A DNA stretch of 64,000 nt from NCBI GenBank assembly GCA_903939735.1, contig CAJAIA010000020.1:1-64000 (forward strand), given 5' to 3'. Position numbers and translations under genes: made by a program. Below are positions 48,397 to 59,005 of the stretch, one piece after another. The stretch's first letter is position 1, and each line of letters opens with the position of its first letter. The notes under the pieces were generated by a model. That model saw only the letters and a program-made list of their open reading frames with translations, ran no database searches and was not told the origin of the DNA. This DNA comes from an uncultured Ignavibacteria bacterium (lineage in GTDB: Bacteria > Bacteroidota > Ignavibacteria > Kapaibacteriales > Kapaibacteriaceae).

Positions 48397-49442
48397 ATCT
48401 CCGTACGACGCTCGTTATCGCGCTATCGTTCTGCGCACTCGCAACAATCACGCAAGCGCAGGAGAAGCACCTTCGCAATATCAAGCAGCTCACGTTTGGT
48501 GGCGACAATGCAGAAGCCTATTGGAGTCCTGACGGCACGAAGCTCGCCTTCCAATCGAACTTCAAGGGATGGGGCCATTCGTGCGATCAGATTCATGCGT
48601 TGACGATTGCAGCAGCTGGTGATTCAACGTACCGTCCGCCGATGATCAGCACTGGAAAGGGGCGCACCACGTGCTCGTACTTCATGCCGAACAGTCGCGA
48701 TGTTCTCTACGCAAGCACGCATCGTCACGACGATACATGTCCGCCCGGACCACCAGAGCGCGCCGACCGCAAGTACCTATGGCAAGTACTCCCGACGTAC
48801 GACATCTACGTGGCAGATCCATCGGGCAGCGTGATCGATACGCTCACCGATCGATACGGCTACGATGCCGAAGCAACGGTTTCACCCAAGGGCGACAAAA
48901 TCGTCTTCACATCGGATCGCAGTGGCGACCTCGAATTGTGGACGATGAACATCGACGGATCGGATGTGCGACAAGTAACGAACGAGCTCGGCTATGATGG
49001 CGGCGCGTTCTTCTCTCCTGATGGAACGATGCTCGTGTACCGCTCATCGCGACCCAAGACGCCTGAGGAACAAGCCGAGTACAAGGAGCTTCTCGCGCAG
49101 GGTCTCGTCGCACCAACGAACATGGAGATCTACGTCTGCAACGTCGACGGATCAAACGTGCGACGCATCACATCTCTTGGCAAAGCGAACTGGGCGCCGT
49201 TCTTCCATCCGTCGCAGAAGAAGATCATCTTCTCATCGAACCACGCATCACCACGCGGCTACGACTTTCAGCTGTACATGATCAATGTGGATGGAACGGG
49301 GCTCGAGAAGATCACGAGCGAGAGCATCTTCAATGCATTCCCGATGTTCTCACCCGATGGCAAGTACATCGTATGGTCGAGCAATCGCAACAACCAAGGC
49401 ACGCGCGACACAAACGTGTTTGTTGCCGAGTGGGTTGATTAG
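48393..49442 (+). CDS. TolB-like PD40 propeller protein, exported
   Basis: 349 aa with signal peptide (MNLRTTLVIALSFCALATIT followed by QAQ). At least five PD40 repeats are visible: EAYWSPDGTKLAFQSN, ATVSPKGDKIVFTSD, GAFFSPDGTMLVYRSS, APFFHPSQKKIIFSSN and PMFSPDGKYIVWSSN. It is periplasmic, TolB-fold, without the TolB N-terminal domain. It is coupled to an outer-membrane barrel gene, suggesting an envelope role. Confidence 0.85.
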   Translation: MNLRTTLVIALSFCALATITQAQEKHLRNIKQLTFGGDNAEAYWSPDGTKLAFQSNFKGWGHSCDQIHALTIAAAGDSTYRPPMISTGKGRTTCSYFMPNSRDVLYASTHRHDDTCPPGPPERADRKYLWQVLPTYDIYVADPSGSVIDTLTDRYGYDAEATVSPKGDKIVFTSDRSGDLELWTMNIDGSDVRQVTNELGYDGGAFFSPDGTMLVYRSSRPKTPEEQAEYKELLAQGLVAPTNMEIYVCNVDGSNVRRITSLGKANWAPFFHPSQKKIIFSSNHASPRGYDFQLYMINVDGTGLEKITSESIFNAFPMFSPDGKYIVWSSNRNNQGTRDTNVFVAEWVD

Positions 49443-49465
49443 GAGAAGTGGCCAGTCCACATGCG

Positions 49466-51694
49466 TCACCGTGCAACGATTACCTTAAGAGCGTTTGAAG
49501 TTTGCGAGTTTCGCACAACTAAGAAATAGACGCCTTCGTTGACATTGTTGACGTCGAGTGTCACTGGCTTTCGGTCGCTTGGCATCACGAACGTTGGCAA
49601 CTGTCTCGAATAATCCCTCACTACACGACCGCTCAGGTCGCACAACTGAAGCGTTACCGTTGCCAGATCCGCTGTGGCAAACTTCCCAATATCAACGGCA
49701 AACGTTCCACTCGTGGGGTTGGGCCGAACATTCTCGAGATATACATGCGAAATGTTCTGTGCAATTTCATCAACCACAGAGGTGGGCAGACCGGACTTCA
49801 ATGAGACTGTGCAGTGTACGCCCCATTTGGGATGAACAAACACAAGGCGGTCGTGCGAATCGAATCTCACCAACGCATCGGTAGTTTCATTAAATGGCGA
49901 ACGGACTGCCCTCGGAAGTACAATGTCCGATGCAACTCTTTCACCAACTATGCGGATAAGACGCAACGACCTAGTATCGAGTATGCTAAGCGTGTCGTTA
50001 GAACTGTGGAATGCTAGGCCATATTGCTCGCGTGGTTTCAAGACTGACACTGAGCTTTGGAGCATTTCGGAAGGTGACTTCCAACGAATCAATGTTACCT
50101 TCAAACTGTCTCCAGTAACAGTCGTTGCCCACGGCATAAATACGAGGATCGCGGATGCAGAGTCGGTGCCAGCTATCCAACAGGTGGACGAAGTTGGCGC
50201 TTGAAGTGTCCAGGCATCTTTCACAGTGTCTGCAGTGACACGTCGGGGAACGACCACGAATCCAGATCCTGATCGGTTAACGACAAGCCATTCCGGCAGG
50301 GTAACAGCCTGCCTCATGAAACCTGATTGACGTGGCTCAAACACAATTGAACGCCAAGTTTCACCTTCGTCCTCGCTAACTCCAAAACCACCATTCCTGA
50401 AGTCCGTGAGATAGTTGCCCATGTTGTCAGATATCAACGGCCCCTTGAACTCAGTGCTTACAAGGCGCACACTGGCGAGATTACGATCGGTGATGAACAC
50501 CCCATTGTTGCCGGCTACAACCAGGGACGTATCAGAACGAACACGAACTGTGGAAACATCGCCGACCGTACTCAACTCCCATGGCATGTCCTTAAGATAG
50601 ATAGAGGTGCTATCATTCACTCCGGATACGCCAAACACAGTCTGCCCCGAGGATGAGCGCCTCTTCCCAAACACGACAATCGAGTCTGAGTTGATGTCAA
50701 CGGTCCAATTCGCCTCGCCTACCCATGATGGCAGAGGTCCCGACACCTTCATTGTATCCGACTCGGTCACGTGCCGAGTTGAACCATCACGATGGAACGT
50801 TAGGAGTGATCGCCCATCATAGTGAACTGCAGATAGGCTTGCTGTTGAACTAATGGCGGAATCAACTACGCGACCTCTATCTCGAGTAGGGCCTAGGGTA
50901 ATAGCAAATGTTCCTAAGAGCGGCCGAAGGCCGGACAAGACAAGCACTCGGCTACCGTCATCATTGAGGCCCATCGACGATGCAATGTAAAACAGCTCGC
51001 GACCATATTGACCGGTGACATTTGCAAACTTCTCGGACAGTCTATTCTGTTGCACAAAGCATTTACCTGCCATGCTGATGTATACCAGGGAACCGTCCTC
51101 AATAACGTGAAACTGTCGCGGCATTGCATCGAGATCAAGGATGTTCGTATCCACCGTATCTCCGGCGAACACAAGCACAGCATTTTCGTCTGTAGGTACG
51201 GCGAGGATGGTGTCTCCCTTTACTGCAATTGCATCGATTGTGGATGAAGCAATAGGTAGACTCCGAATCGTCATCACTTGGTTTCGAGTGAGACGTTTTA
51301 CCGTTCTCCCGGCCGCATACACGAGCGTGCTGTCGTGATCGACAAACAGCGAGAATACGAGCGTATCCACAACTCGAACAGAACCCAGCTGTGGCGCTGA
51401 TTCGAGTAGCCGTCCACGTGCTGTAAGTAGAAACAGACTCCCGTTCACGTACTCGATGCGACGAACGAATTCACCCTTTTGCTGCGGCAGAACGGCAAAC
51501 GTGCCGTTACGCGGGTTGAACAACGAAACACTTCCGTTAGCTCGCAGCACGCAAACACTTGTGTCCACCTGCCTTGCCTCAACGACAAACGAGTACTGGT
51601 CGGGATAGAGAGGTGCGAACCTACTTTCTTGGCACCATGACACATTGGCTGTGAATATGGTGGCCACAAGGCAAACAATCACGTGCTTCAGCAT
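49466..51694 (-). CDS. Secreted propeller-like protein with T9SS sorting domain
   Basis: 742 aa. Signal peptide MLKHVIVCLVATIFTANVSW followed by CQ. The middle contains many short beta repeats with no firm family (SEDEGETWRSI suggests a BNR-type motif). The last ~85 residues form a type A T9SS sorting domain: LENVRPNPTSGTFAVDIG, LCDLSGRVVRDY, VNEGVYFLVVRN and a final Arg. The sequence looks AT-richer than the preceding genes, as do the accessory genes to its right, so it may belong to the same acquired region. No -7 box close to the start was seen. Confidence 0.82.
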   Translation of the reverse strand: MLKHVIVCLVATIFTANVSWCQESRFAPLYPDQYSFVVEARQVDTSVCVLRANGSVSLFNPRNGTFAVLPQQKGEFVRRIEYVNGSLFLLTARGRLLESAPQLGSVRVVDTLVFSLFVDHDSTLVYAAGRTVKRLTRNQVMTIRSLPIASSTIDAIAVKGDTILAVPTDENAVLVFAGDTVDTNILDLDAMPRQFHVIEDGSLVYISMAGKCFVQQNRLSEKFANVTGQYGRELFYIASSMGLNDDGSRVLVLSGLRPLLGTFAITLGPTRDRGRVVDSAISSTASLSAVHYDGRSLLTFHRDGSTRHVTESDTMKVSGPLPSWVGEANWTVDINSDSIVVFGKRRSSSGQTVFGVSGVNDSTSIYLKDMPWELSTVGDVSTVRVRSDTSLVVAGNNGVFITDRNLASVRLVSTEFKGPLISDNMGNYLTDFRNGGFGVSEDEGETWRSIVFEPRQSGFMRQAVTLPEWLVVNRSGSGFVVVPRRVTADTVKDAWTLQAPTSSTCWIAGTDSASAILVFMPWATTVTGDSLKVTLIRWKSPSEMLQSSVSVLKPREQYGLAFHSSNDTLSILDTRSLRLIRIVGERVASDIVLPRAVRSPFNETTDALVRFDSHDRLVFVHPKWGVHCTVSLKSGLPTSVVDEIAQNISHVYLENVRPNPTSGTFAVDIGKFATADLATVTLQLCDLSGRVVRDYSRQLPTFVMPSDRKPVTLDVNNVNEGVYFLVVRNSQTSNALKVIVAR

Positions 51695-51786
51695 ATCAGA
51701 GTAGGGCTCGTGTCACAATCAGCGGTTTAGTTACTGTCGCAGGTATTCACGTTACAGTCGTTACAGGGGGCTAATCTCTGGGCACA

Positions 51787-51821
51787 ACATAAACGAGAAA
51801 CATAAACGAGAAACACAAACG
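51787..51821. repeat. 13-bp tandem repeat
   Basis: ACATAAACGAGAA occurs at 51787-51799 and 51800-51812, followed by a partial third copy (ACACAAACG). It lies 3 bp from the end of the broken selD tail. Confidence 0.6.
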
Positions 51822-51823
51822 TA

Positions 51824-52157
51824 TCACACTCCTGAGACAATCAGCACGGCATTTCCCTGTTCTGCACGCTCCCGAATTACACCAATGGAGTGAAGTGCGC
51901 CGAGTCCAAGCACAGACGCAACCGCAACAAATGCATCAACATGCGCAGGATCGACACTCACCAACAGTCCACCGCTTGTTTGCGGATCGCAGAGCACTGC
52001 ACGTTGCTCGTCTGTGAGCGCACTGATGCGATGACCATACGCTGCGAAATTGCGATTGGTACCACCAGGCACGCAGCCTTGTGCGACGTAGGAACGAATC
52101 GCTGCATCATCGATGAGTGGCACCGCTGATGCGTCGAGCAACGCAGTGCACGATGCT
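51824..52157 (-). pseudogene. Broken selD 3' end, copy A (distinct C-terminal tail)
   Basis: On the minus strand this encodes the last third of SelD ([35 protein letters not shown]) and ends at a stop at 51824. It lacks everything upstream of the 19-bp junction sequence at 52139-52157. About 200 bp are nearly identical to the intact gene, but the last ~40 residues differ ([20 protein letters not shown] in A). It may be the displaced original 3' end of the selD locus after an insertion. No start or ribosome-binding signal. Confidence 0.85.
52139..52157. repeat. 19-bp junction repeat, copy 1
   Basis: CAACGCAGTGCACGATGCT. Joins selD tail A to the small peptide segment. Identical copies at 54392, 56904 and 57327. 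Confidence 0.9.
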
Positions 52158-52180
52158 GCTGCCTTTATTTTCCTAATCCA

Positions 52181-52306
52181 TTACTGCAGTATACTGCGGG
52201 CCAGACCCTTCTCGGCGTAGTTCTGTTGATCGATCCGGATATACTTGCTGGTAGGGATTCTGTACTTCTCCGGCAGAGTGGACAGTGGTGTGGTAGATGA
52301 GGCCAT
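52181..52306 (-). CDS. 41-aa peptide gene segment, full-length copy
   Basis: ATG at 52306 preceded by AAGGA-like sequence; the product starts MASSTTPLSTLPEKYR and continues IPTSKYIRIDQQNYAEKGLA. Its last 26 residues recur, with changes, next to the selD tails at 54.2 kb and 57.0 kb. It could be a real small protein or the C-terminal end of a lost mobile-element protein. The stop region contains the perfect palindrome GCAGTATACTGC. Confidence 0.4.
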   Translation of the reverse strand: MASSTTPLSTLPEKYRIPTSKYIRIDQQNYAEKGLARSILQ

Positions 52307-52409
52307 TTTCCTTGCAATCGGTGGAAAATCAATGTAACATGCCTCTGCCGAGGGGGCTAGATCGGTTGTTTGATGGGAGAGATACGTAGTTGACTGCGCG
52401 GAGGAATCG

Positions 52410-54014
52410 ATGCGCGATTATTGCTGTAGGCTGATTGTTGCCGTTGCCCTTGCGACCTTGGTTGGGCTTTGTCCGGCAGTTGCTGACGCGCAGGAGATCT
52501 TGCGTGGGGGCGAGGTGATACTAACGACAAGAAGTGTAAGTCACCAGACGGTTGTAATCGGGCCAGACAGTGTCTGTGTATATGCTCGTACTTACTCCGG
52601 CGATAGTACACCAGTTGTACTTCATCAGTTCGACGCAAAGAGGCGTTTCTGGGACTCCATTCCGTTTGGAGGCAGGCTCCTATATGCTGCCAACGGTGGC
52701 CTCATGGCAGGCTACGAGACCTTGTTTGACTCTGCCACCTCCGGCTTTGTGAGGAAGATCTGGATCGGCCGGACGATCAACGACATCCGAACTGTGATTG
52801 CTGGAGACTCGGGCGACATCCCCTCCACCAGTCGGATCATCGACATCGTGGCCCATCCGTACAGCCCAGCGGTGGCGATCGTTAAGCTGGGTAACTATCC
52901 CCGGGACTTTCAGCATGCGTTCATCACAACGGATGCGGGCATCACGTGGCGGACGTTCGACCCACCAACAAAGGCCGGTGACTTCCGGAGGTTGTACTAC
53001 TATGGGTTCGACGCGCGGTATCCAACCCGTATCCATATCGCGGTGGAGCGCGATGCAGGCTTCGGGTTCGAGACTCTCGGTACCCGCACGGTATACACCG
53101 AGGACTTTGGGCAGTCGTGGACCGATACACTGCGGTACGTCAATGGTGAGCCAATGCCGGTGATGGAGCCGTGCATAGAACAAGGTGTTGGCATCTGGAG
53201 CAAGGTAGGAGGTCTGGTGTATGAGGATCCTACAGCCAACGGAGCGCCAAAGCACTGGTGGCTCACATCGGACTCGTTGTTTCTCGAGCCGGGCGAGGCG
53301 CCGAGAAGGGTCCAACTGCCGTGGCTTGAGAATGCACGAAGGTGTATAGCACCAGGTTCCGATACAAACGTAGTAACGTTTGAGTACTATTATCAATGGC
53401 ACCTTAGCTATCACCAGAAGTGGCCGGACATCGTTGTGCTGTCCTTTGATTGCAGGTATCGGGTGGACACGGGACTTGTTCGTGAGATATTTGTTGCGAT
53501 GACGAATGATTTCGGTAAGTCTTGGTCGTTACTTGCGCGAATCAAGGCGAATACAATGCGGGACGAATTCGATTATGTCGAACTCGATGACATCGATCTC
53601 GACCCGTCCGGCCCGCACATATACGTGTCATATCGTCATACAAGATATCAGGTCATTGAAGGTCGTACCCAATTCTTCGGCGCTGCCTACACGGTGCGCT
53701 GGAGCAACATCCCCACCGGAGTCGAGGACCACGGTGTTGCCCATCCAGGACCATTGGTCCTCCGTACCTCGCCGAATCCGGTATCCGGATCCGCCACACT
53801 GCGTGTGAATGTTGAATCGTCGCTGGAGCTGTCTTCCGTGAAGGATGTTGCGATCTACGACGCTAGCGGGTCACTTTCCGCTACGTGTGGTGCACACATC
53901 GTATCCGACAAGGCGTTCGATGTCAAACTGCCTGGGCTCGTGCCCGGGGTGTATATCCTCGTCATACGCACGGCATACTTAACGAATACAATAGGGTTTG
54001 TAGTTCTGGACTAG
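52410..54014 (+). CDS. Secreted BNR/sialidase-like propeller with T9SS sorting domain
   Basis: 534 aa. Signal peptide MRDYCCRLIVAVALATLVGL followed by CPAVADAQ. BNR (Asp-box-like) repeats: TTDAGITWRTFD, TEDFGQSWTDTL, TNDFGKSWSLLA. The C-terminal domain (LRTSPNPVSGSATLRVN, IYDASGSLSATC, LVPGVYILVIRT) is a T9SS type A tail. No sialidase catalytic residues could be identified. It lies between two broken selD tails and is the cargo of the left cassette. Confidence 0.83.
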   Translation: MRDYCCRLIVAVALATLVGLCPAVADAQEILRGGEVILTTRSVSHQTVVIGPDSVCVYARTYSGDSTPVVLHQFDAKRRFWDSIPFGGRLLYAANGGLMAGYETLFDSATSGFVRKIWIGRTINDIRTVIAGDSGDIPSTSRIIDIVAHPYSPAVAIVKLGNYPRDFQHAFITTDAGITWRTFDPPTKAGDFRRLYYYGFDARYPTRIHIAVERDAGFGFETLGTRTVYTEDFGQSWTDTLRYVNGEPMPVMEPCIEQGVGIWSKVGGLVYEDPTANGAPKHWWLTSDSLFLEPGEAPRRVQLPWLENARRCIAPGSDTNVVTFEYYYQWHLSYHQKWPDIVVLSFDCRYRVDTGLVREIFVAMTNDFGKSWSLLARIKANTMRDEFDYVELDDIDLDPSGPHIYVSYRHTRYQVIEGRTQFFGAAYTVRWSNIPTGVEDHGVAHPGPLVLRTSPNPVSGSATLRVNVESSLELSSVKDVAIYDASGSLSATCGAHIVSDKAFDVKLPGLVPGVYILVIRTAYLTNTIGFVVLD

Positions 54015-54074
54015 GGTAGGCCAGGACCATTTCATGTTTTAGTTGCTAGGAGGTCGTCATGTATGCTTTTAGGA

Positions 54075-54095
54075 ACGCCGCGATGTTCGCGGCGT
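54075..54095. other. 9-bp perfect hairpin
   Basis: ACGCCGCGA pairs with TCGCGGCGT around a TGT loop. There is no T-run, so a terminator is uncertain. It sits 10 bp before the cassette boundary and could mark an element end. Confidence 0.5.
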
Positions 54096-54103
54096 ATATG
54101 ATC

Positions 54104-54217
54104 AGATGCTGCACCCTTTACTTCCATATCCATGACTGCAGTGTACTGTGGTCAGTACCGATCTTCTCGGCGCAGTACTGTTGTCCGATACAGAAATACT
54201 TACTGGTTGGGATACGA
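54104..54217 (-). repeat. Small-peptide segment, copy B
   Basis: Minus-strand sequence nearly identical to 56917-57026. It encodes RIPTSKYFCIGQQ and then differs (YCAEKIGTDHSTLQ), and it has lost the stop present in copies A and C. Immediately downstream of selD tail B. Confidence 0.75.
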
Positions 54218-54410
54218 TTAACCTATCTGAACAGCGACCTCTGTTCGAGCCGACATTACGCCGATCGAAGTAGCTGATATCGTGTTGTTCTGCGCACATA
54301 CCGCAACAAATTCATCAACATACGCAGGATCGACACTCACCAACAGTCCACCGCTTGTTTGCGGATCGCACAGCACCGCTGATGCGTCGAGCAACGCAGT
54401 GCACGATGCT
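54218..54410 (-). pseudogene. Broken selD 3' end, copy B, internally deleted
   Basis: Same C-terminal tail as intact SelD ([21 protein letters not shown]), but 126 bp (42 codons) are missing. The deletion runs between two GCACCGC direct repeats that are seen intact at 57182-57188 and 57308-57314, fused here at 54373-54379. The copy starts at the 19-bp junction. Only a few substitutions separate it from the intact gene, so the duplication is recent. Confidence 0.85.
54392..54410. repeat. 19-bp junction repeat, copy 2
   Basis: CAACGCAGTGCACGATGCT, in the same orientation as copies 1, 3 and 4. It separates selD tail B from the thioredoxin-like gene. Confidence 0.9.
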
Positions 54411-54445
54411 ACCACTTGCTGGTAGGAGATAGGGACCTCCAATTA

Positions 54446-55909
54446 TTAACGCTTAGCAACCCGTCGAACAAAGTCCACAACGTTCTCAATCTCAATGTCT
54501 CTCGCGATTATCTCGCCCCCTCTTCCAAGAATGAGAATTGTCGGGAATGATGTTATAGCCAACTGATCAGCTAGCCTCTTGATGCTACCCTGGGATTTAT
54601 GAGCAAACAACTGTTCTCCGCTCCTGTTCTGAGAAAAACGCTTCCAGATCGGGAAACGAGCACTATTCTCACACGCTATGTGAATAGTCCGAAACCCCAT
54701 GGACTCGATAGTGTCTGCAGTGGCCTCAACCAGATCGTAGCTATCGATACAGGGCTTGCACCAAGTGCCCCAAAAGTGGAGCATGTACATCGAATCAGGA
54801 TTAATCTCACGAGTAATGATGACAGAGTCATACCGTGTGCCCTCAAACGAATCTATGACCTTCGTTGAAAGAGCGTCGCATAAACTTTGCAGATCGATTC
54901 GAAGTCTGCTACAGAAGTACGAAGAGTCAGTTTCGGCAAGGCTCATGAGGTAACGTGGCAACTCCTCCGTACACCGTTCGAAGTGAAAACCTGGAACAAC
55001 CGACGATCTCTGATACAAACCATACCCTACTTCACACGCACAGGACTCTCCAGCAATTGAGAGCACCTTTTTCGCAACGTCTAGAGATAGTCGTCTGTCT
55101 AAAGTGCCATCTTTGGAGCGCATCCATTTCGGCATTTGGTAGGCCGACGCATATGCAATACTCCTTACCATCATATATGCCTCATTAGACAATGATATCA
55201 TGCGCAGAGATCTCGCTCCCTTTCTCGACTCGAATACCTCGCGTCTTCCATTTGTAGATGTCTCTGCTTCGACTCTTGCAGAGTCCGATTCAGCCTCGTA
55301 TCGCGTCTGCACGGAATTGATGTACCAACGGACAGGTTCAATCACACTGTCACGAATAACTGCCTTTTGAAATGGCATGTAGAACATGTCTGATAGTGTG
55401 GCCTCCGCTATGTTCAGCTGCTTATTGATCTCAGCGTACGCCTGAGAGAGCATGGCCGATGAGGCAACTATAGGCCATACTGCACGAGTGAGATGCCTTA
55501 CCGCTTCGCTATATCGCTCAATCACCGGATCATTTGCCTGTGCAGACGCGTGATAGCATGTGAAACGAACAACTAGCGAATCGTGAAGCAAGGGATTTAT
55601 GAAAAATTCCCGCGCATATGCTCCCTCAGGGAGATAAATGTTTGCATGGTACGCCTTGCTCTTATCGAGTTCAATGCTGAAGAATTGATTCAATGGACCG
55701 CTATACAATGTGTCACCACTACTCGCCAGGGTCAATTGCCAATTCACGTTACTGCTCAGGTTATCGATGCGTAACGTAATCTCTTTGGACTCTATTTTGC
55801 GAAGCACTTGTGCAGGTACGTATTGGCAGGTAAATACCACCTGAAACAAAATCACCAGCCATACTCTATTGATATAGCTGGCGTTGCATACATTGTACTC
55901 AGAGATCAT
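54446..55909 (-). CDS. Exported thioredoxin-like (TlpA/ResA-type) protein
   Basis: 487 aa. An N-terminal hydrophobic segment (VWLVILFQVVFTCQYVPAQ) acts as signal or anchor. The first ~330 residues are a poorly conserved helical region like the N-terminal domain of Bacteroidota TlpA-like proteins. The C-terminal ~140 residues are a thioredoxin fold with FWGTWCKPCID (CxxC redox pair) and the cis-Pro region ITSFPTILIL. Its ATG overlaps the stop of the Cys-rich gene (TAATG), so the two are translated together. AT-rich and lacking a leaderless-type box, unlike native genes. Confidence 0.82.
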   Translation of the reverse strand: MISEYNVCNASYINRVWLVILFQVVFTCQYVPAQVLRKIESKEITLRIDNLSSNVNWQLTLASSGDTLYSGPLNQFFSIELDKSKAYHANIYLPEGAYAREFFINPLLHDSLVVRFTCYHASAQANDPVIERYSEAVRHLTRAVWPIVASSAMLSQAYAEINKQLNIAEATLSDMFYMPFQKAVIRDSVIEPVRWYINSVQTRYEAESDSARVEAETSTNGRREVFESRKGARSLRMISLSNEAYMMVRSIAYASAYQMPKWMRSKDGTLDRRLSLDVAKKVLSIAGESCACEVGYGLYQRSSVVPGFHFERCTEELPRYLMSLAETDSSYFCSRLRIDLQSLCDALSTKVIDSFEGTRYDSVIITREINPDSMYMLHFWGTWCKPCIDSYDLVEATADTIESMGFRTIHIACENSARFPIWKRFSQNRSGEQLFAHKSQGSIKRLADQLAITSFPTILILGRGGEIIARDIEIENVVDFVRRVAKR

Positions 55910-56379
55910 TAGTTGAACGACCCCAAGTAGCCAGGTGCTGCCTGAGGGTCGCTTGTGAGAACGCATTCGACTCTGTTCCCGTTACAATCTCCCCCACAAA
56001 CTGGTGGTAGAGAACACGGATCGTAGTTACAAGCCGGGTGGCTGCATCTGTGAACCATTCCGCCCGCCCCATTGAAGATATACGAGTTTCCACCTGAAAC
56101 AGTCAGTGCAATCCAACAGGTAAACGCTTTGCCGGACTTAACACCGCGCCCCCACAAAAACCAGTTTGACCCAGACTTGACAAGGTCTATAGTAGTCGGA
56201 GACACCGTCGACCCGTCGTTGAACTCTTGTTCAAAGGCGCTAGCGAGAGTCACCTTGCTTGCTGAGAACGTGTACGTACCTCCACTGATTGTCGCTACAA
56301 CGGTCTGTGAATGTGCGCTCGATACAAGTGCAACGAGCGCTACACCTGTCAACAGAATCGCACGGATGAACTTTCTCAT
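55909..56379 (-). CDS. Small secreted cysteine-rich protein
   Basis: 156 aa. Signal peptide MRKFIRAILLTGVALVALVS followed by SAHSQ. The mature protein has seven cysteines; six are packed in the C-terminal part (HRCSHPACNYDPCSLPPVCG, then GDCNGNRVEC), suggesting a disulfide-stabilised knot. A GGAG Shine-Dalgarno lies ~7 nt before the ATG, unusual here and consistent with foreign origin. No family recognised. It is directly coupled to a thioredoxin-like protein that could form or reduce its disulfides. ATG 56391 is an alternative start four codons upstream. Confidence 0.7.
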   Translation of the reverse strand: MRKFIRAILLTGVALVALVSSAHSQTVVATISGGTYTFSASKVTLASAFEQEFNDGSTVSPTTIDLVKSGSNWFLWGRGVKSGKAFTCWIALTVSGGNSYIFNGAGGMVHRCSHPACNYDPCSLPPVCGGDCNGNRVECVLTSDPQAAPGYLGSFN

Positions 56380-56520
56380 ATACATCTCCAAATTGAGTGA
56401 AATAGATAGTATTGTCCACTTTGTTTGTAGTTGGACTCTTGATCGTATGTTGATTGAAAGCCAGTGAATTGTATAGATACCTCCATATGCTGTAGATGAT
56501 GCATACTGTGATTGCGTGAT

Positions 56521-56820
56521 TTAGGAGGCCAGTTTCAGAACACCGTCATTGTATTCGATCCCGTGAAGAATACTGGCGGCGTGAACGAATCCATCAATCC
56601 TCCGCCATGTCTTCTCTGCCTGTTTCGCGAGCATGAACATCATTCTAACTGCAGCCTCTCCTGGGCCGTTAGCGTTGGTCTACTTACTCCATTGTCTGAT
56701 CGAAGCTAACATTGATTCAATCTCGTTCGTCGGCTCTATGGACCTAAAGTGTTCGGCTATACTTGACGACGCAGTGAGAACATACACCAACATATTTACA
56801 CGAGCAAACGTAATCCACAT
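56521..56820 (-). pseudogene. IS256-family transposase remnant (C-terminal third)
   Basis: About 100 codons in one frame with an internal TAG at 56680-56682. The translation carries the C-terminal signature of Mutator/IS256 transposases: EHFRSIEPTNEIESMLASIR (canonical EHW..lRTTNPIESTFATVR), then MMFMLAKQAEKTWRRIDG and HGIEYNDGVL. The N-terminal part with most of the DDE residues is absent. No terminal inverted repeats were found by eye. The rest of 56392-56903 shows no gene. Confidence 0.75.
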
Positions 56821-56903
56821 TGGTCGTGCGGGCAACAGAGAGCACGACGAAACACAGCTCCAGGCTCTGTCACCCTATTCGGCATGATCTCCGCTATACG
56901 ATG

Positions 56904-56922
56904 CAACGCAGTGCACGATGCT
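56904..56922. repeat. 19-bp junction repeat, copy 3
   Basis: CAACGCAGTGCACGATGCT, at the outer edge of the segment next to intact selD, followed by GCACCCTTTACTTCC as at copy B. Confidence 0.9.
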
Positions 56923-56944
56923 GCACCCTTTACTTCCATATCCA

Positions 56945-57025
56945 TTACTGCAGTGTACCGAGTGCCATACCCTTCTCGGCGAGGTTCTGTTGTCCGATAC
57001 AGAAATACTTACTGGTTGGGATACG
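56945..57025 (-). repeat. Small-peptide segment, copy C
   Basis: Minus-strand 26-codon stretch RIPTSKYFCIGQQNLAEKGM and on to a TAA stop at 56945, lying directly behind the selD stop. It lacks the start codon and the first 15 codons of copy A. Confidence 0.75.
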
Positions 57026-57026
57026 A

Positions 57027-58073
57027 TTAACCTATCTGAACAGCGACCTCTGTTCGAGCCGACATTACGCCGATCGAAGTAGCTGACATCGTGTTGTTCT
57101 GCGCACACACCGCAACGAACTCATCAACATGCGCAGGATCGACACTCACCAACAGTCCACCGCTTGTTTGCGGATCGCACAGCACCGCACGCTGCTCGTC
57201 CGTGAGCGCACTGATGCGATGACCATACGCTGCGAAATTGCGATTGGTGCCACCAGGCACGCAGCCTTGTGCGACGTAAGAACGAATCGCGGCATCATCG
57301 ATGAGTGGCACCGCTGATGCGTCGAGCAACGCAGTGCACGATGCTCCATCGGCGAGCTCGACTAAGTGTCCGAGTAGACCAAACCCCGTGACGTCGGTCA
57401 TCGCATGCACGTAGGGCAATGCGCCAAACGCTGCACCTGCTGAATTGAGTTTCACCATCACGTCGCGCGCCCATGTAGCGTGCTCAGGTTGCAGCACGCC
57501 ATTCTTCTCGGCCGTGGTGAGGATGCCGACTCCGAGCGGTTTGGTGAGAAATAACACGTCGCCTACCTTGGCGCCTGTGTTTGTTTTGAGATGGTTCAGT
57601 GCTACTCGCCCCGTAACGGCCAGACCAAAGATCGGCTCCGGACTGTCGATGCTATGTCCGCCTGCAAGGGGAATGCCTGCTTCGGCGCACGCCATGCGTG
57701 CCCCTTCCAAGACTAAGCGTGCAGCCTCGACCGGCACCGTATTGACGGGCCATCCCAACACGGCAATGGCCATCATCGGCGTACCGCCCATTGCATAGAC
57801 ATCGCTGATTGCGTTCACACTAGCGATGCGACCAAAGTCAACAGGATCATCGACGATGGGCATGAAGAAATCTGTCGTGCTCACAACCGCCGTACCATCA
57901 CCAAGGTCGTACACAGCTGCATCATCGCGTGATGCATTGCCTACGAGCAACCGCGCATCATGCGGTGCAACAAACGTCGAATGCAAGATGGTGTCGAGCA
58001 CGGATGGAGAAATCTTACATCCACAGCCAGCGCCGTGCGAATACTGCGTTAGCCGATATGAAGGTGTGCTCAT
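57027..58073 (-). CDS. selD: Selenide, water dikinase SelD
   Basis: 348 aa. Makes selenophosphate from selenide and ATP. The catalytic loop HGAGCGCK puts Cys17 and Lys20 at the same positions as in E. coli; both cysteines are TGT, so there is no selenocysteine. Other motifs: [43 protein letters not shown] and [15 protein letters not shown]. The last ~40 residues differ from copy A and match copy B, so the 3' end may have been replaced. It starts at an ATGA overlap with mnmH. The 19-bp junction sequence lies inside the gene at 57327-57345. Confidence 0.96.
57327..57345. repeat. 19-bp junction repeat, copy 4 (inside selD)
   Basis: CAACGCAGTGCACGATGCT within the selD coding sequence (codes for part of SCTALLD on the minus strand). 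This is the presumed original target site. Confidence 0.9.
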
Positions 58074-59005
58074 GGCGTGTTGTTGTTGATGCGTTGGGTT
58101 TGACAATACGTGTAGGTCGCGTCGTAGTACGACAAGGCAAGGTCTGCTGCGGTCGCGAGATCGCCCGCTGCAACAGCTTCGCAGGCGCGCTGATAGCGAT
58201 CGCCACCAAGCTTGCGCTCGATGCGAGAGAATGCAGAGAGCAACATCTCAGCAGAAACTTCACCGTAGTCGCGCACTAAGCGAGCGATGCGTTCTTCGCG
58301 CGGTGTGTCAAGCGTCGTCATCCGAGCTGACTGCATGGCATCGAAGAGCACATCGGGAAGATGCACTGTGCCGATGGTGCGGCTTTCATCTTCGACGTAG
58401 ATCTCGCGTGATGGATCGCACGAAGAGAGGAAGAGTGCAATGTTGTTATGCACTTGCTCCGTTGTGGGCTGCGTGCCCATTGCGCCAAATGCCGAGCCCT
58501 TATGATTGGCGAGCGCTTCGAGGTCGAGCACGCGCTCACCACGTGCAGCAAGCGCATGCAGATGATCTGTCTTCCCTGCTCCCGTCATGCCGGCAATCAC
58601 ATGATACTTCCACGGCTGTGCAATCACACTGCGCGCCCACGACTTGAAGCCCTTGTACCCGCGTGGCACGATGCGTGGTTGCAATCCGGCAGCTGCATAA
58701 AGCCAAGCTACCGACGAGCTGCGCATGCCGCCGCGCCAACAGTAGACGATGAGCGGACGGTCGAGGGCACGTGCTTGATCGACGAGTTCATGCATGCGCG
58801 GACCGACATAGCGCAAGCCTTCGTCGAAGGCGATCGTTGCGCCCTGCTGCACATACAGCGTGCCTACATGCGCACGCTCGTCGTTGCTGAAGAGTGGGAT
58901 GTTGACTGCATTCGGAATGTGTCCCTGCTGGTATTCAGCAGGTGAACGCACATCGATGATGGCGTACTGTGGATCTCGCAGATCGTCAAACACCGTAGTC
59001 ATCAT
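58070..59005 (-). CDS. mnmH: tRNA 2-selenouridine synthase MnmH (SelU)
   Basis: 311 aa. Converts 2-thiouridine at the wobble position of tRNAs to 2-selenouridine via geranylation, using selenophosphate from SelD. N-terminal rhodanese domain ([20 protein letters not shown]; active Cys in [12 protein letters not shown]), then a P-loop domain ([17 protein letters not shown]). The start (MMTTVF) overlaps the end of the upstream nuclease gene by 20 bp; ATG 59002 is equally possible. The selD start overlaps its stop, giving a compact selenium-modification operon. Confidence 0.95.

What the first reader, a model, noticed from the sequence alone, without database searches (positions are those of the whole stretch)
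54446..56379. Coupled pair: seven-Cys secreted protein and exported thioredoxin
A new-looking 156-aa exported protein with six cysteines packed in its C-terminal part shares a TAATG stop/start junction with an exported CxxC thioredoxin-like protein. The pair is AT-rich, has an SD sequence unlike its neighbours and sits inside the selD cassette array. Inference: a mobile two-gene unit for a disulfide-rich secreted effector or peptide plus its dedicated oxidoreductase.
Basis: partly seen in the sequence, partly recalled or inferred. Interest (0 to 1): 0.62.

Follow-up and report, generated by a model that had tools for sequence, protein, structure and literature searches.

The report
Six-cysteine exported protein with thioredoxin partner
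An undescribed small exported protein with six cysteines packed near its end is encoded directly in front of a thioredoxin-like enzyme, and the same pairing recurs in several families of the phylum, so the enzyme very probably acts on that protein, although what the protein does is unknown.

Summary
A 156-aa exported protein (SP; Cys 88 plus six Cys at 112-139) overlaps an exported thioredoxin-like protein (487 aa, CKPC) by one base (TAATG). The pair is AT-rich and lies in a 7.6-kb insertion behind selD with two duplicated selD 3' ends; two sister species have the empty site. SP matches nothing in Pfam, NCBIfam, PADLOC or PDB sequences, but profiles find relatives across the phylum. In the window's order 10 of 12 SP loci are followed on the same strand by an exported thioredoxin-like gene, plus three outside it; all 15 linked SPs have exactly six tail cysteines. 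Partner enzymes differ in their N-terminal parts; five operons add a DUF3078-like gene. Best reading: SP is the specific client of a TlpA/ResA-like thiol oxidoreductase. The pairing and the conserved cysteines are shown; that the enzyme acts on SP, in which redox direction, and what SP does are inferred. "Effector or peptide" is unsupported: SP is better conserved than its thioredoxin, and unlinked relatives include lipoproteins and one probable type 9 secretion fusion. The pair was inserted here, but no recombinase was recognised, so "mobile two-gene unit" overstates it.

The parts
55909..56379 (-). SP: 156-aa exported six-plus-one cysteine protein
   Evidence: ORF, signal-like N-terminus, Cys 88/112/117/122/128/132/139; homologues; N-domain modelled at pLDDT about 80
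54446..55909 (-). Exported thioredoxin-like (TlpA/ResA-like) oxidoreductase, 487 aa, active site WCKPC
   Evidence: Thioredoxin_8 29.4 bits, cut-off 27; Foldseek matches to ResA/TlpA/DsbE-type structures
55907..55911 (-). TAATG stop/start overlap between SP and thioredoxin
   Evidence: sequence
57027..58106 (-). Intact selD (selenide, water dikinase), next to the insertion
   Evidence: NCBIfam equivalog
49443..57025 (.). Insertion of about 7.6 kb absent from two sister species
   Evidence: G005 and G003 selD runs straight into the gene that ends at window 49442
54163..54410 (-). Duplicated selD 3' end with a 126-bp internal deletion, plus part of the downstream repeat
51824..52157 (-). Duplicated selD 3' end; first 236 bp 98.3% identical to sister species G005, then a divergent selD-like terminus
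56903..57022 (-). Repeat next to intact selD; related copies at 54105-54220 and 52138-52258, and at G000 C16:52540-52679
52410..54014 (+). Inserted 534-aa exported protein with a T9SS-type C-terminus
   Evidence: Por_Secre_tail weak
49466..51694 (-). Inserted 742-aa exported protein with a T9SS sorting domain
   Evidence: Por_Secre_tail above cut-off

Best explanation
SP is a Sec-exported small protein made of an N-terminal alpha/beta domain, a six-cysteine tail and a short C-terminal G-x-[LI]-G-x-F motif. Translation runs on into a TlpA/ResA-like thioredoxin that is exported too and acts specifically on the six cysteines (forming, shuffling or reducing disulfides) so that SP reaches its mature state in the periplasm or at the cell surface. 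Shown: both genes, the overlap, the recurrent pairing, constancy of six cysteines in linked copies, and the insertion at selD. Inferred: export, that SP is the enzyme's client, that the tail forms three disulfides, and surface location.
For: Within the own order 10 of 12 SP loci have a thioredoxin-like gene next downstream on the same strand, overlapping or within about 112 nt; G115, G599 and G605 outside it do too. Genomes of this group hold only 8-14 Thioredoxin_8 matches, so chance adjacency is below about 1% per locus. The 15 linked SP genes read (12 counted by script, three by eye) each have six tail Cys, while non-linked relatives have 4, 6, 7 or 8. In two genomes two SP genes precede one thioredoxin. 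Partner thioredoxins differ in their N-terminal part, so the link is more than one inherited operon.
Against: No biochemistry. The tail is modelled at pLDDT below 50. Three partners are poor catalysts on paper: G115 and G599 keep one Cys of CxxC, and the G045 C30 copy is frameshifted at the active site, though another thioredoxin follows. Most SP relatives outside the order have no thioredoxin beside them. The active-site residues (CKPC, Phe before Pro) do not tell oxidase from isomerase or reductase.
Confidence: 0.55

Rival explanations
1. SP is a metal-binding protein: its cysteines (with a His after the last Cys in many relatives) ligate a metal, and the thioredoxin keeps them reduced for loading, as TlpA does for copper-enzyme assembly (own knowledge).
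For: Many distant relatives share CxGxxCxxC..GCxC..C(N/G)H; the fold matches of the partner are mainly the ResA/TlpA/DsbE group.
Against: The window SP and its nearest relatives lack the CNH motif and the CxC spacing; no metal transport or oxidase genes are adjacent; ligand geometry cannot be tested because the tail is not modelled.
Confidence: 0.2
2. SP is a redox partner of the thioredoxin (electron donor, acceptor or regulator), and the thioredoxin works on other envelope proteins, such as the DUF3078-like protein encoded next in five operons.
For: SP is more conserved than the thioredoxin (56% against 41%); DUF3078-like third gene in five operons.
Against: The window pair and both G019 pairs lack the third gene; two SPs per thioredoxin fits clients better than a cofactor.
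Confidence: 0.15
3. The genes share an operon without acting on each other.
For: Eleven SP loci outside the order, and G091 and G037 within it, have no neighbouring thioredoxin.
Against: Recurrent same-order pairing in at least four families with different thioredoxin architectures.
Confidence: 0.1

Closest known systems
TlpA/ResA/CcmG-type exported thiol-disulfide oxidoreductases
   Same: Thioredoxin fold with CxxC at the C-terminus of an exported protein; Foldseek matches BVU-2223, ResA, DsbE, TlpA structures
   Different: Long N-terminal beta and helical parts; the Glu three residues after CxxC of typical CcmG proteins (PMC5909903) is Ser here
Sublancin operon with BdbB (Bacillus subtilis prophage SPbeta)
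   Same: A small exported cysteine-rich product encoded with its own thiol-disulfide oxidoreductase, in a mobile region (PMC6391423)
   Different: SP has a Sec-type signal and a folded N-domain; no peptidase-transporter, glycosyltransferase or known immunity gene among the adjacent ORFs
DsbL/DsbI with arylsulfate sulfotransferase
   Same: Dedicated oxidoreductase for a named exported client (reference cited in PMC12724015)
   Different: DsbA-class oxidase with a membrane partner; here a TlpA/ResA-like enzyme and no DsbI-like gene adjacent
NVEALA family (PF14055)
   Same: Small exported Cys-containing proteins of Bacteroidota (from memory)
   Different: No match in the window genome and none above cut-off in 99 genomes of the phylum

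Membership tests
TlpA/ResA-like thiol-disulfide oxidoreductase (partner) | Thioredoxin fold with CxxC and cis-Pro | tested here: met
   Thioredoxin_8 29.4 bits, cut-off 27 (26); WCKPC and SFP in alignment; fold matches E about 1e-5 to 1e-3 from a model with mean pLDDT 47
TlpA/ResA-like thiol-disulfide oxidoreductase (partner) | Glu three residues after CxxC of typical ResA/CcmG | tested here: not met
   CKPCIDS in the window; Glu present in the G000 C43 paralogue CEPCIRE
NVEALA (PF14055) | Match to the curated profile | tested here: not met
   no match in G000; none in Pfam scans of SP
Bacteriocin of glycocin kind | Dedicated peptidase-ABC transporter and glycosyltransferase in the operon | tested here: not met
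   neighbouring ORFs are selD fragments and two T9SS-type proteins
Type 9 secretion substrate | C-terminal sorting domain | tested here: not met
   none in SP or its thioredoxin; a weak one only in the G037 relative
Integron gene cassette | integrase with attC-like hairpin sites | tested here: inconclusive
   no recombinase recognised in the insertion; the repeat does not fold better than shuffles
Cystatin-like fold (SP N-domain) | helix packed on an antiparallel sheet | tested here: inconclusive
   beta-beta-alpha-beta model at pLDDT about 80, best Z 4.4, within the range of common arrangements

The most novel reading that the evidence does not exclude
An undescribed, phylum-wide family of six-cysteine exported proteins, each matured by its own TlpA/ResA-like thioredoxin and in some operons delivered with a DUF3078-like envelope protein: a dedicated redox maturation route for surface proteins of Bacteroidota.
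Probability: 0.3. Interest if true: 0.65.

Novelty: new variant of a known kind. Interest (0 to 1): 0.5.

Why it matters
Bacteroidota encode many exported TlpA-like thioredoxins without known clients (own knowledge). A gene pair in which a small six-cysteine protein precedes such an enzyme gives a concrete, testable client for one group, and a protein family that current libraries do not hold.

Tried and rejected
NVEALA membership: no match. Known anti-phage defence: no PADLOC match. Phage or plasmid carriage: no tblastn match of SP; no viral contig for the thioredoxin. PDB sequence relatives of SP: none credible. attC-like folding of the repeat: not better than shuffles. The repeat as the end of a recombinase or helix-turn-helix gene: considered from its reading frame, no convincing homologue outside the own genome found, left open. 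BFVD fold matches of SP: none credible. A DUF1936 hit of SP (E 0.0089, 12 residues) is below its cut-off and was ignored. Literature searches gave no description of the family. The thioredoxin N-terminal part was not searched as a model of its own; the whole model had low confidence.

Full report
What is there. On the minus strand, SP runs from ATG 56379 to TAA 55909 (156 aa) and the thioredoxin-like protein from ATG 55909 to TAA 54446 (487 aa); the last base of the first stop is the first base of the next start, TAATG. SP has Cys 88 and six more at 112-139. Its N-terminus reads as a Sec signal peptide; that is by eye, no signal predictor was run. GC is 52% and 47%, window 56.1%.

Where it sits. 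The pair lies in an insertion. In sister genomes G005 and G003, selD (95% and 90% identical in protein) runs directly into the convergent gene that in the window ends at 49442, so about 49443-57025 is inserted. The insertion holds the pair, two exported proteins with T9SS-type ends (534 and 742 aa), two duplicated selD 3' ends and a repeat of about 120 bp in three related copies. The selD fragment at 52157-51921 is 98.3% identical to the sister species' selD, then changes to another selD-like terminus. A fourth copy of the repeat lies beyond eno on contig C16, next to an exported metalloprotease-like ORF. How the segments were joined is not known. A 20-nt stretch shared by selD and the junctions suggests recombination there, and no recombinase was recognised.

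Is the pairing real. Profile searches with growing alignments gave SP relatives in the own order and elsewhere in the phylum. In the own order ten loci have a thioredoxin-like gene next downstream on the same strand (window, G019 twice, G045 twice, G084 twice, G481, G065, G475; the last two with two SP genes before one thioredoxin) and two do not (G091; G037, whose SP carries a weak T9SS end). Outside the order, G115, G599 and G605 are linked and eleven loci are not (G252, G453, G166, G155, G319 twice, G430, G407 twice, G501, G712). Neighbours of G453, G430 and the second G319 locus were read only from about 3 kb of sequence or less. The G605 partner was recognised by Pfam, not by the small profile built from the other partners. 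The fairly complete genomes of the order that were searched hold 8-14 Thioredoxin_8 matches, so a chance neighbour is well under 1%; related loci are not independent, but about six lineages or more remain.

Six cysteines. A script count gave exactly six tail cysteines in each of the 12 linked SPs counted. For G481, G599 and G605 I counted six by eye from translations. Of the non-linked ones counted, G252 has 4, G155 has 6, G091 has 7 and G037 has 8. Many distant members share CxGxxCxxC...GCxC...C(N/G)H; the window SP and its nearest relative do not. Linked members of families f1 and f9 and of the G084/G481 genus end in a G-x-[LI]-G-x-F-like motif.

The partner. The C-terminal third is a thioredoxin domain (Pfam; fold matches to TlpA/ResA/DsbE-type structures); the N-terminal parts differ among partners, that of G605 visibly so. 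Five operons continue with a DUF3078-like gene, above the Pfam cut-off in one and below it or absent by Pfam in the others; for the latter the assignment leans on position and resemblance by eye.

Structure. AlphaFold2 from three sequences gave an SP N-domain at pLDDT about 80 (two strands, a helix, then strands) and a tail mostly below 50. The best structural matches, including cystatin-like and monellin folds, reach Z 4.4, which may be only a common arrangement.

Interpretation. The recurrent order, different partner architectures and constant six cysteines argue that the thioredoxin acts on SP. Oxidation, isomerisation or reduction cannot be told apart: the active site is CKPC with Phe before the cis-Pro and Ser where CcmG-type reductases have Glu; one CcmG-family protein is both reductase and isomerase (PMC5909903). 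The identity of tail (30 of 46) and N-domain (55 of 86) with the nearest relative is similar, and SP is better conserved than its partner (56% against 41%), which does not look like a fast-diversifying effector. The nearest working parallel is a small secreted product with its own oxidoreductase, such as sublancin with BdbB (PMC6391423), but the defining parts of that system are absent here.

Noticed in passing
window 49443-57025: Insertion behind selD with duplicated, partly deleted selD 3' ends and three cargo units; empty in two sister species.
   Followed up: partly
G000 C16:52540-52679 (L084): Fourth copy of the selD-linked repeat beyond eno, beside an exported metalloprotease-like ORF with a Cys-rich N-terminus.
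   Followed up: partly
L078 (JAGFIZ010000005.1): Public record titled Bradyrhizobiaceae whose contig matches genome G019, which is placed in the window's own family; the title looks wrong.
   Followed up: no
G000 C43:198-1484 (L020, L086): Second thioredoxin of the same kind (27% over nearly full length) at a contig start, so any SP before it is cut off.
   Followed up: partly
L091 4831-6162: G045 C30 partner thioredoxin loses its CxxC by an apparent frameshift, and a second TlpA-like gene follows.
   Followed up: no
L085 1780-2355 (G018 C5): Reading frame ending FIGSFY* upstream of a thioredoxin gene, perhaps a decayed SP.
   Followed up: partly
G001 C7:380-568: Extra selD N-terminal fragment upstream of the intact selD.
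   Followed up: no
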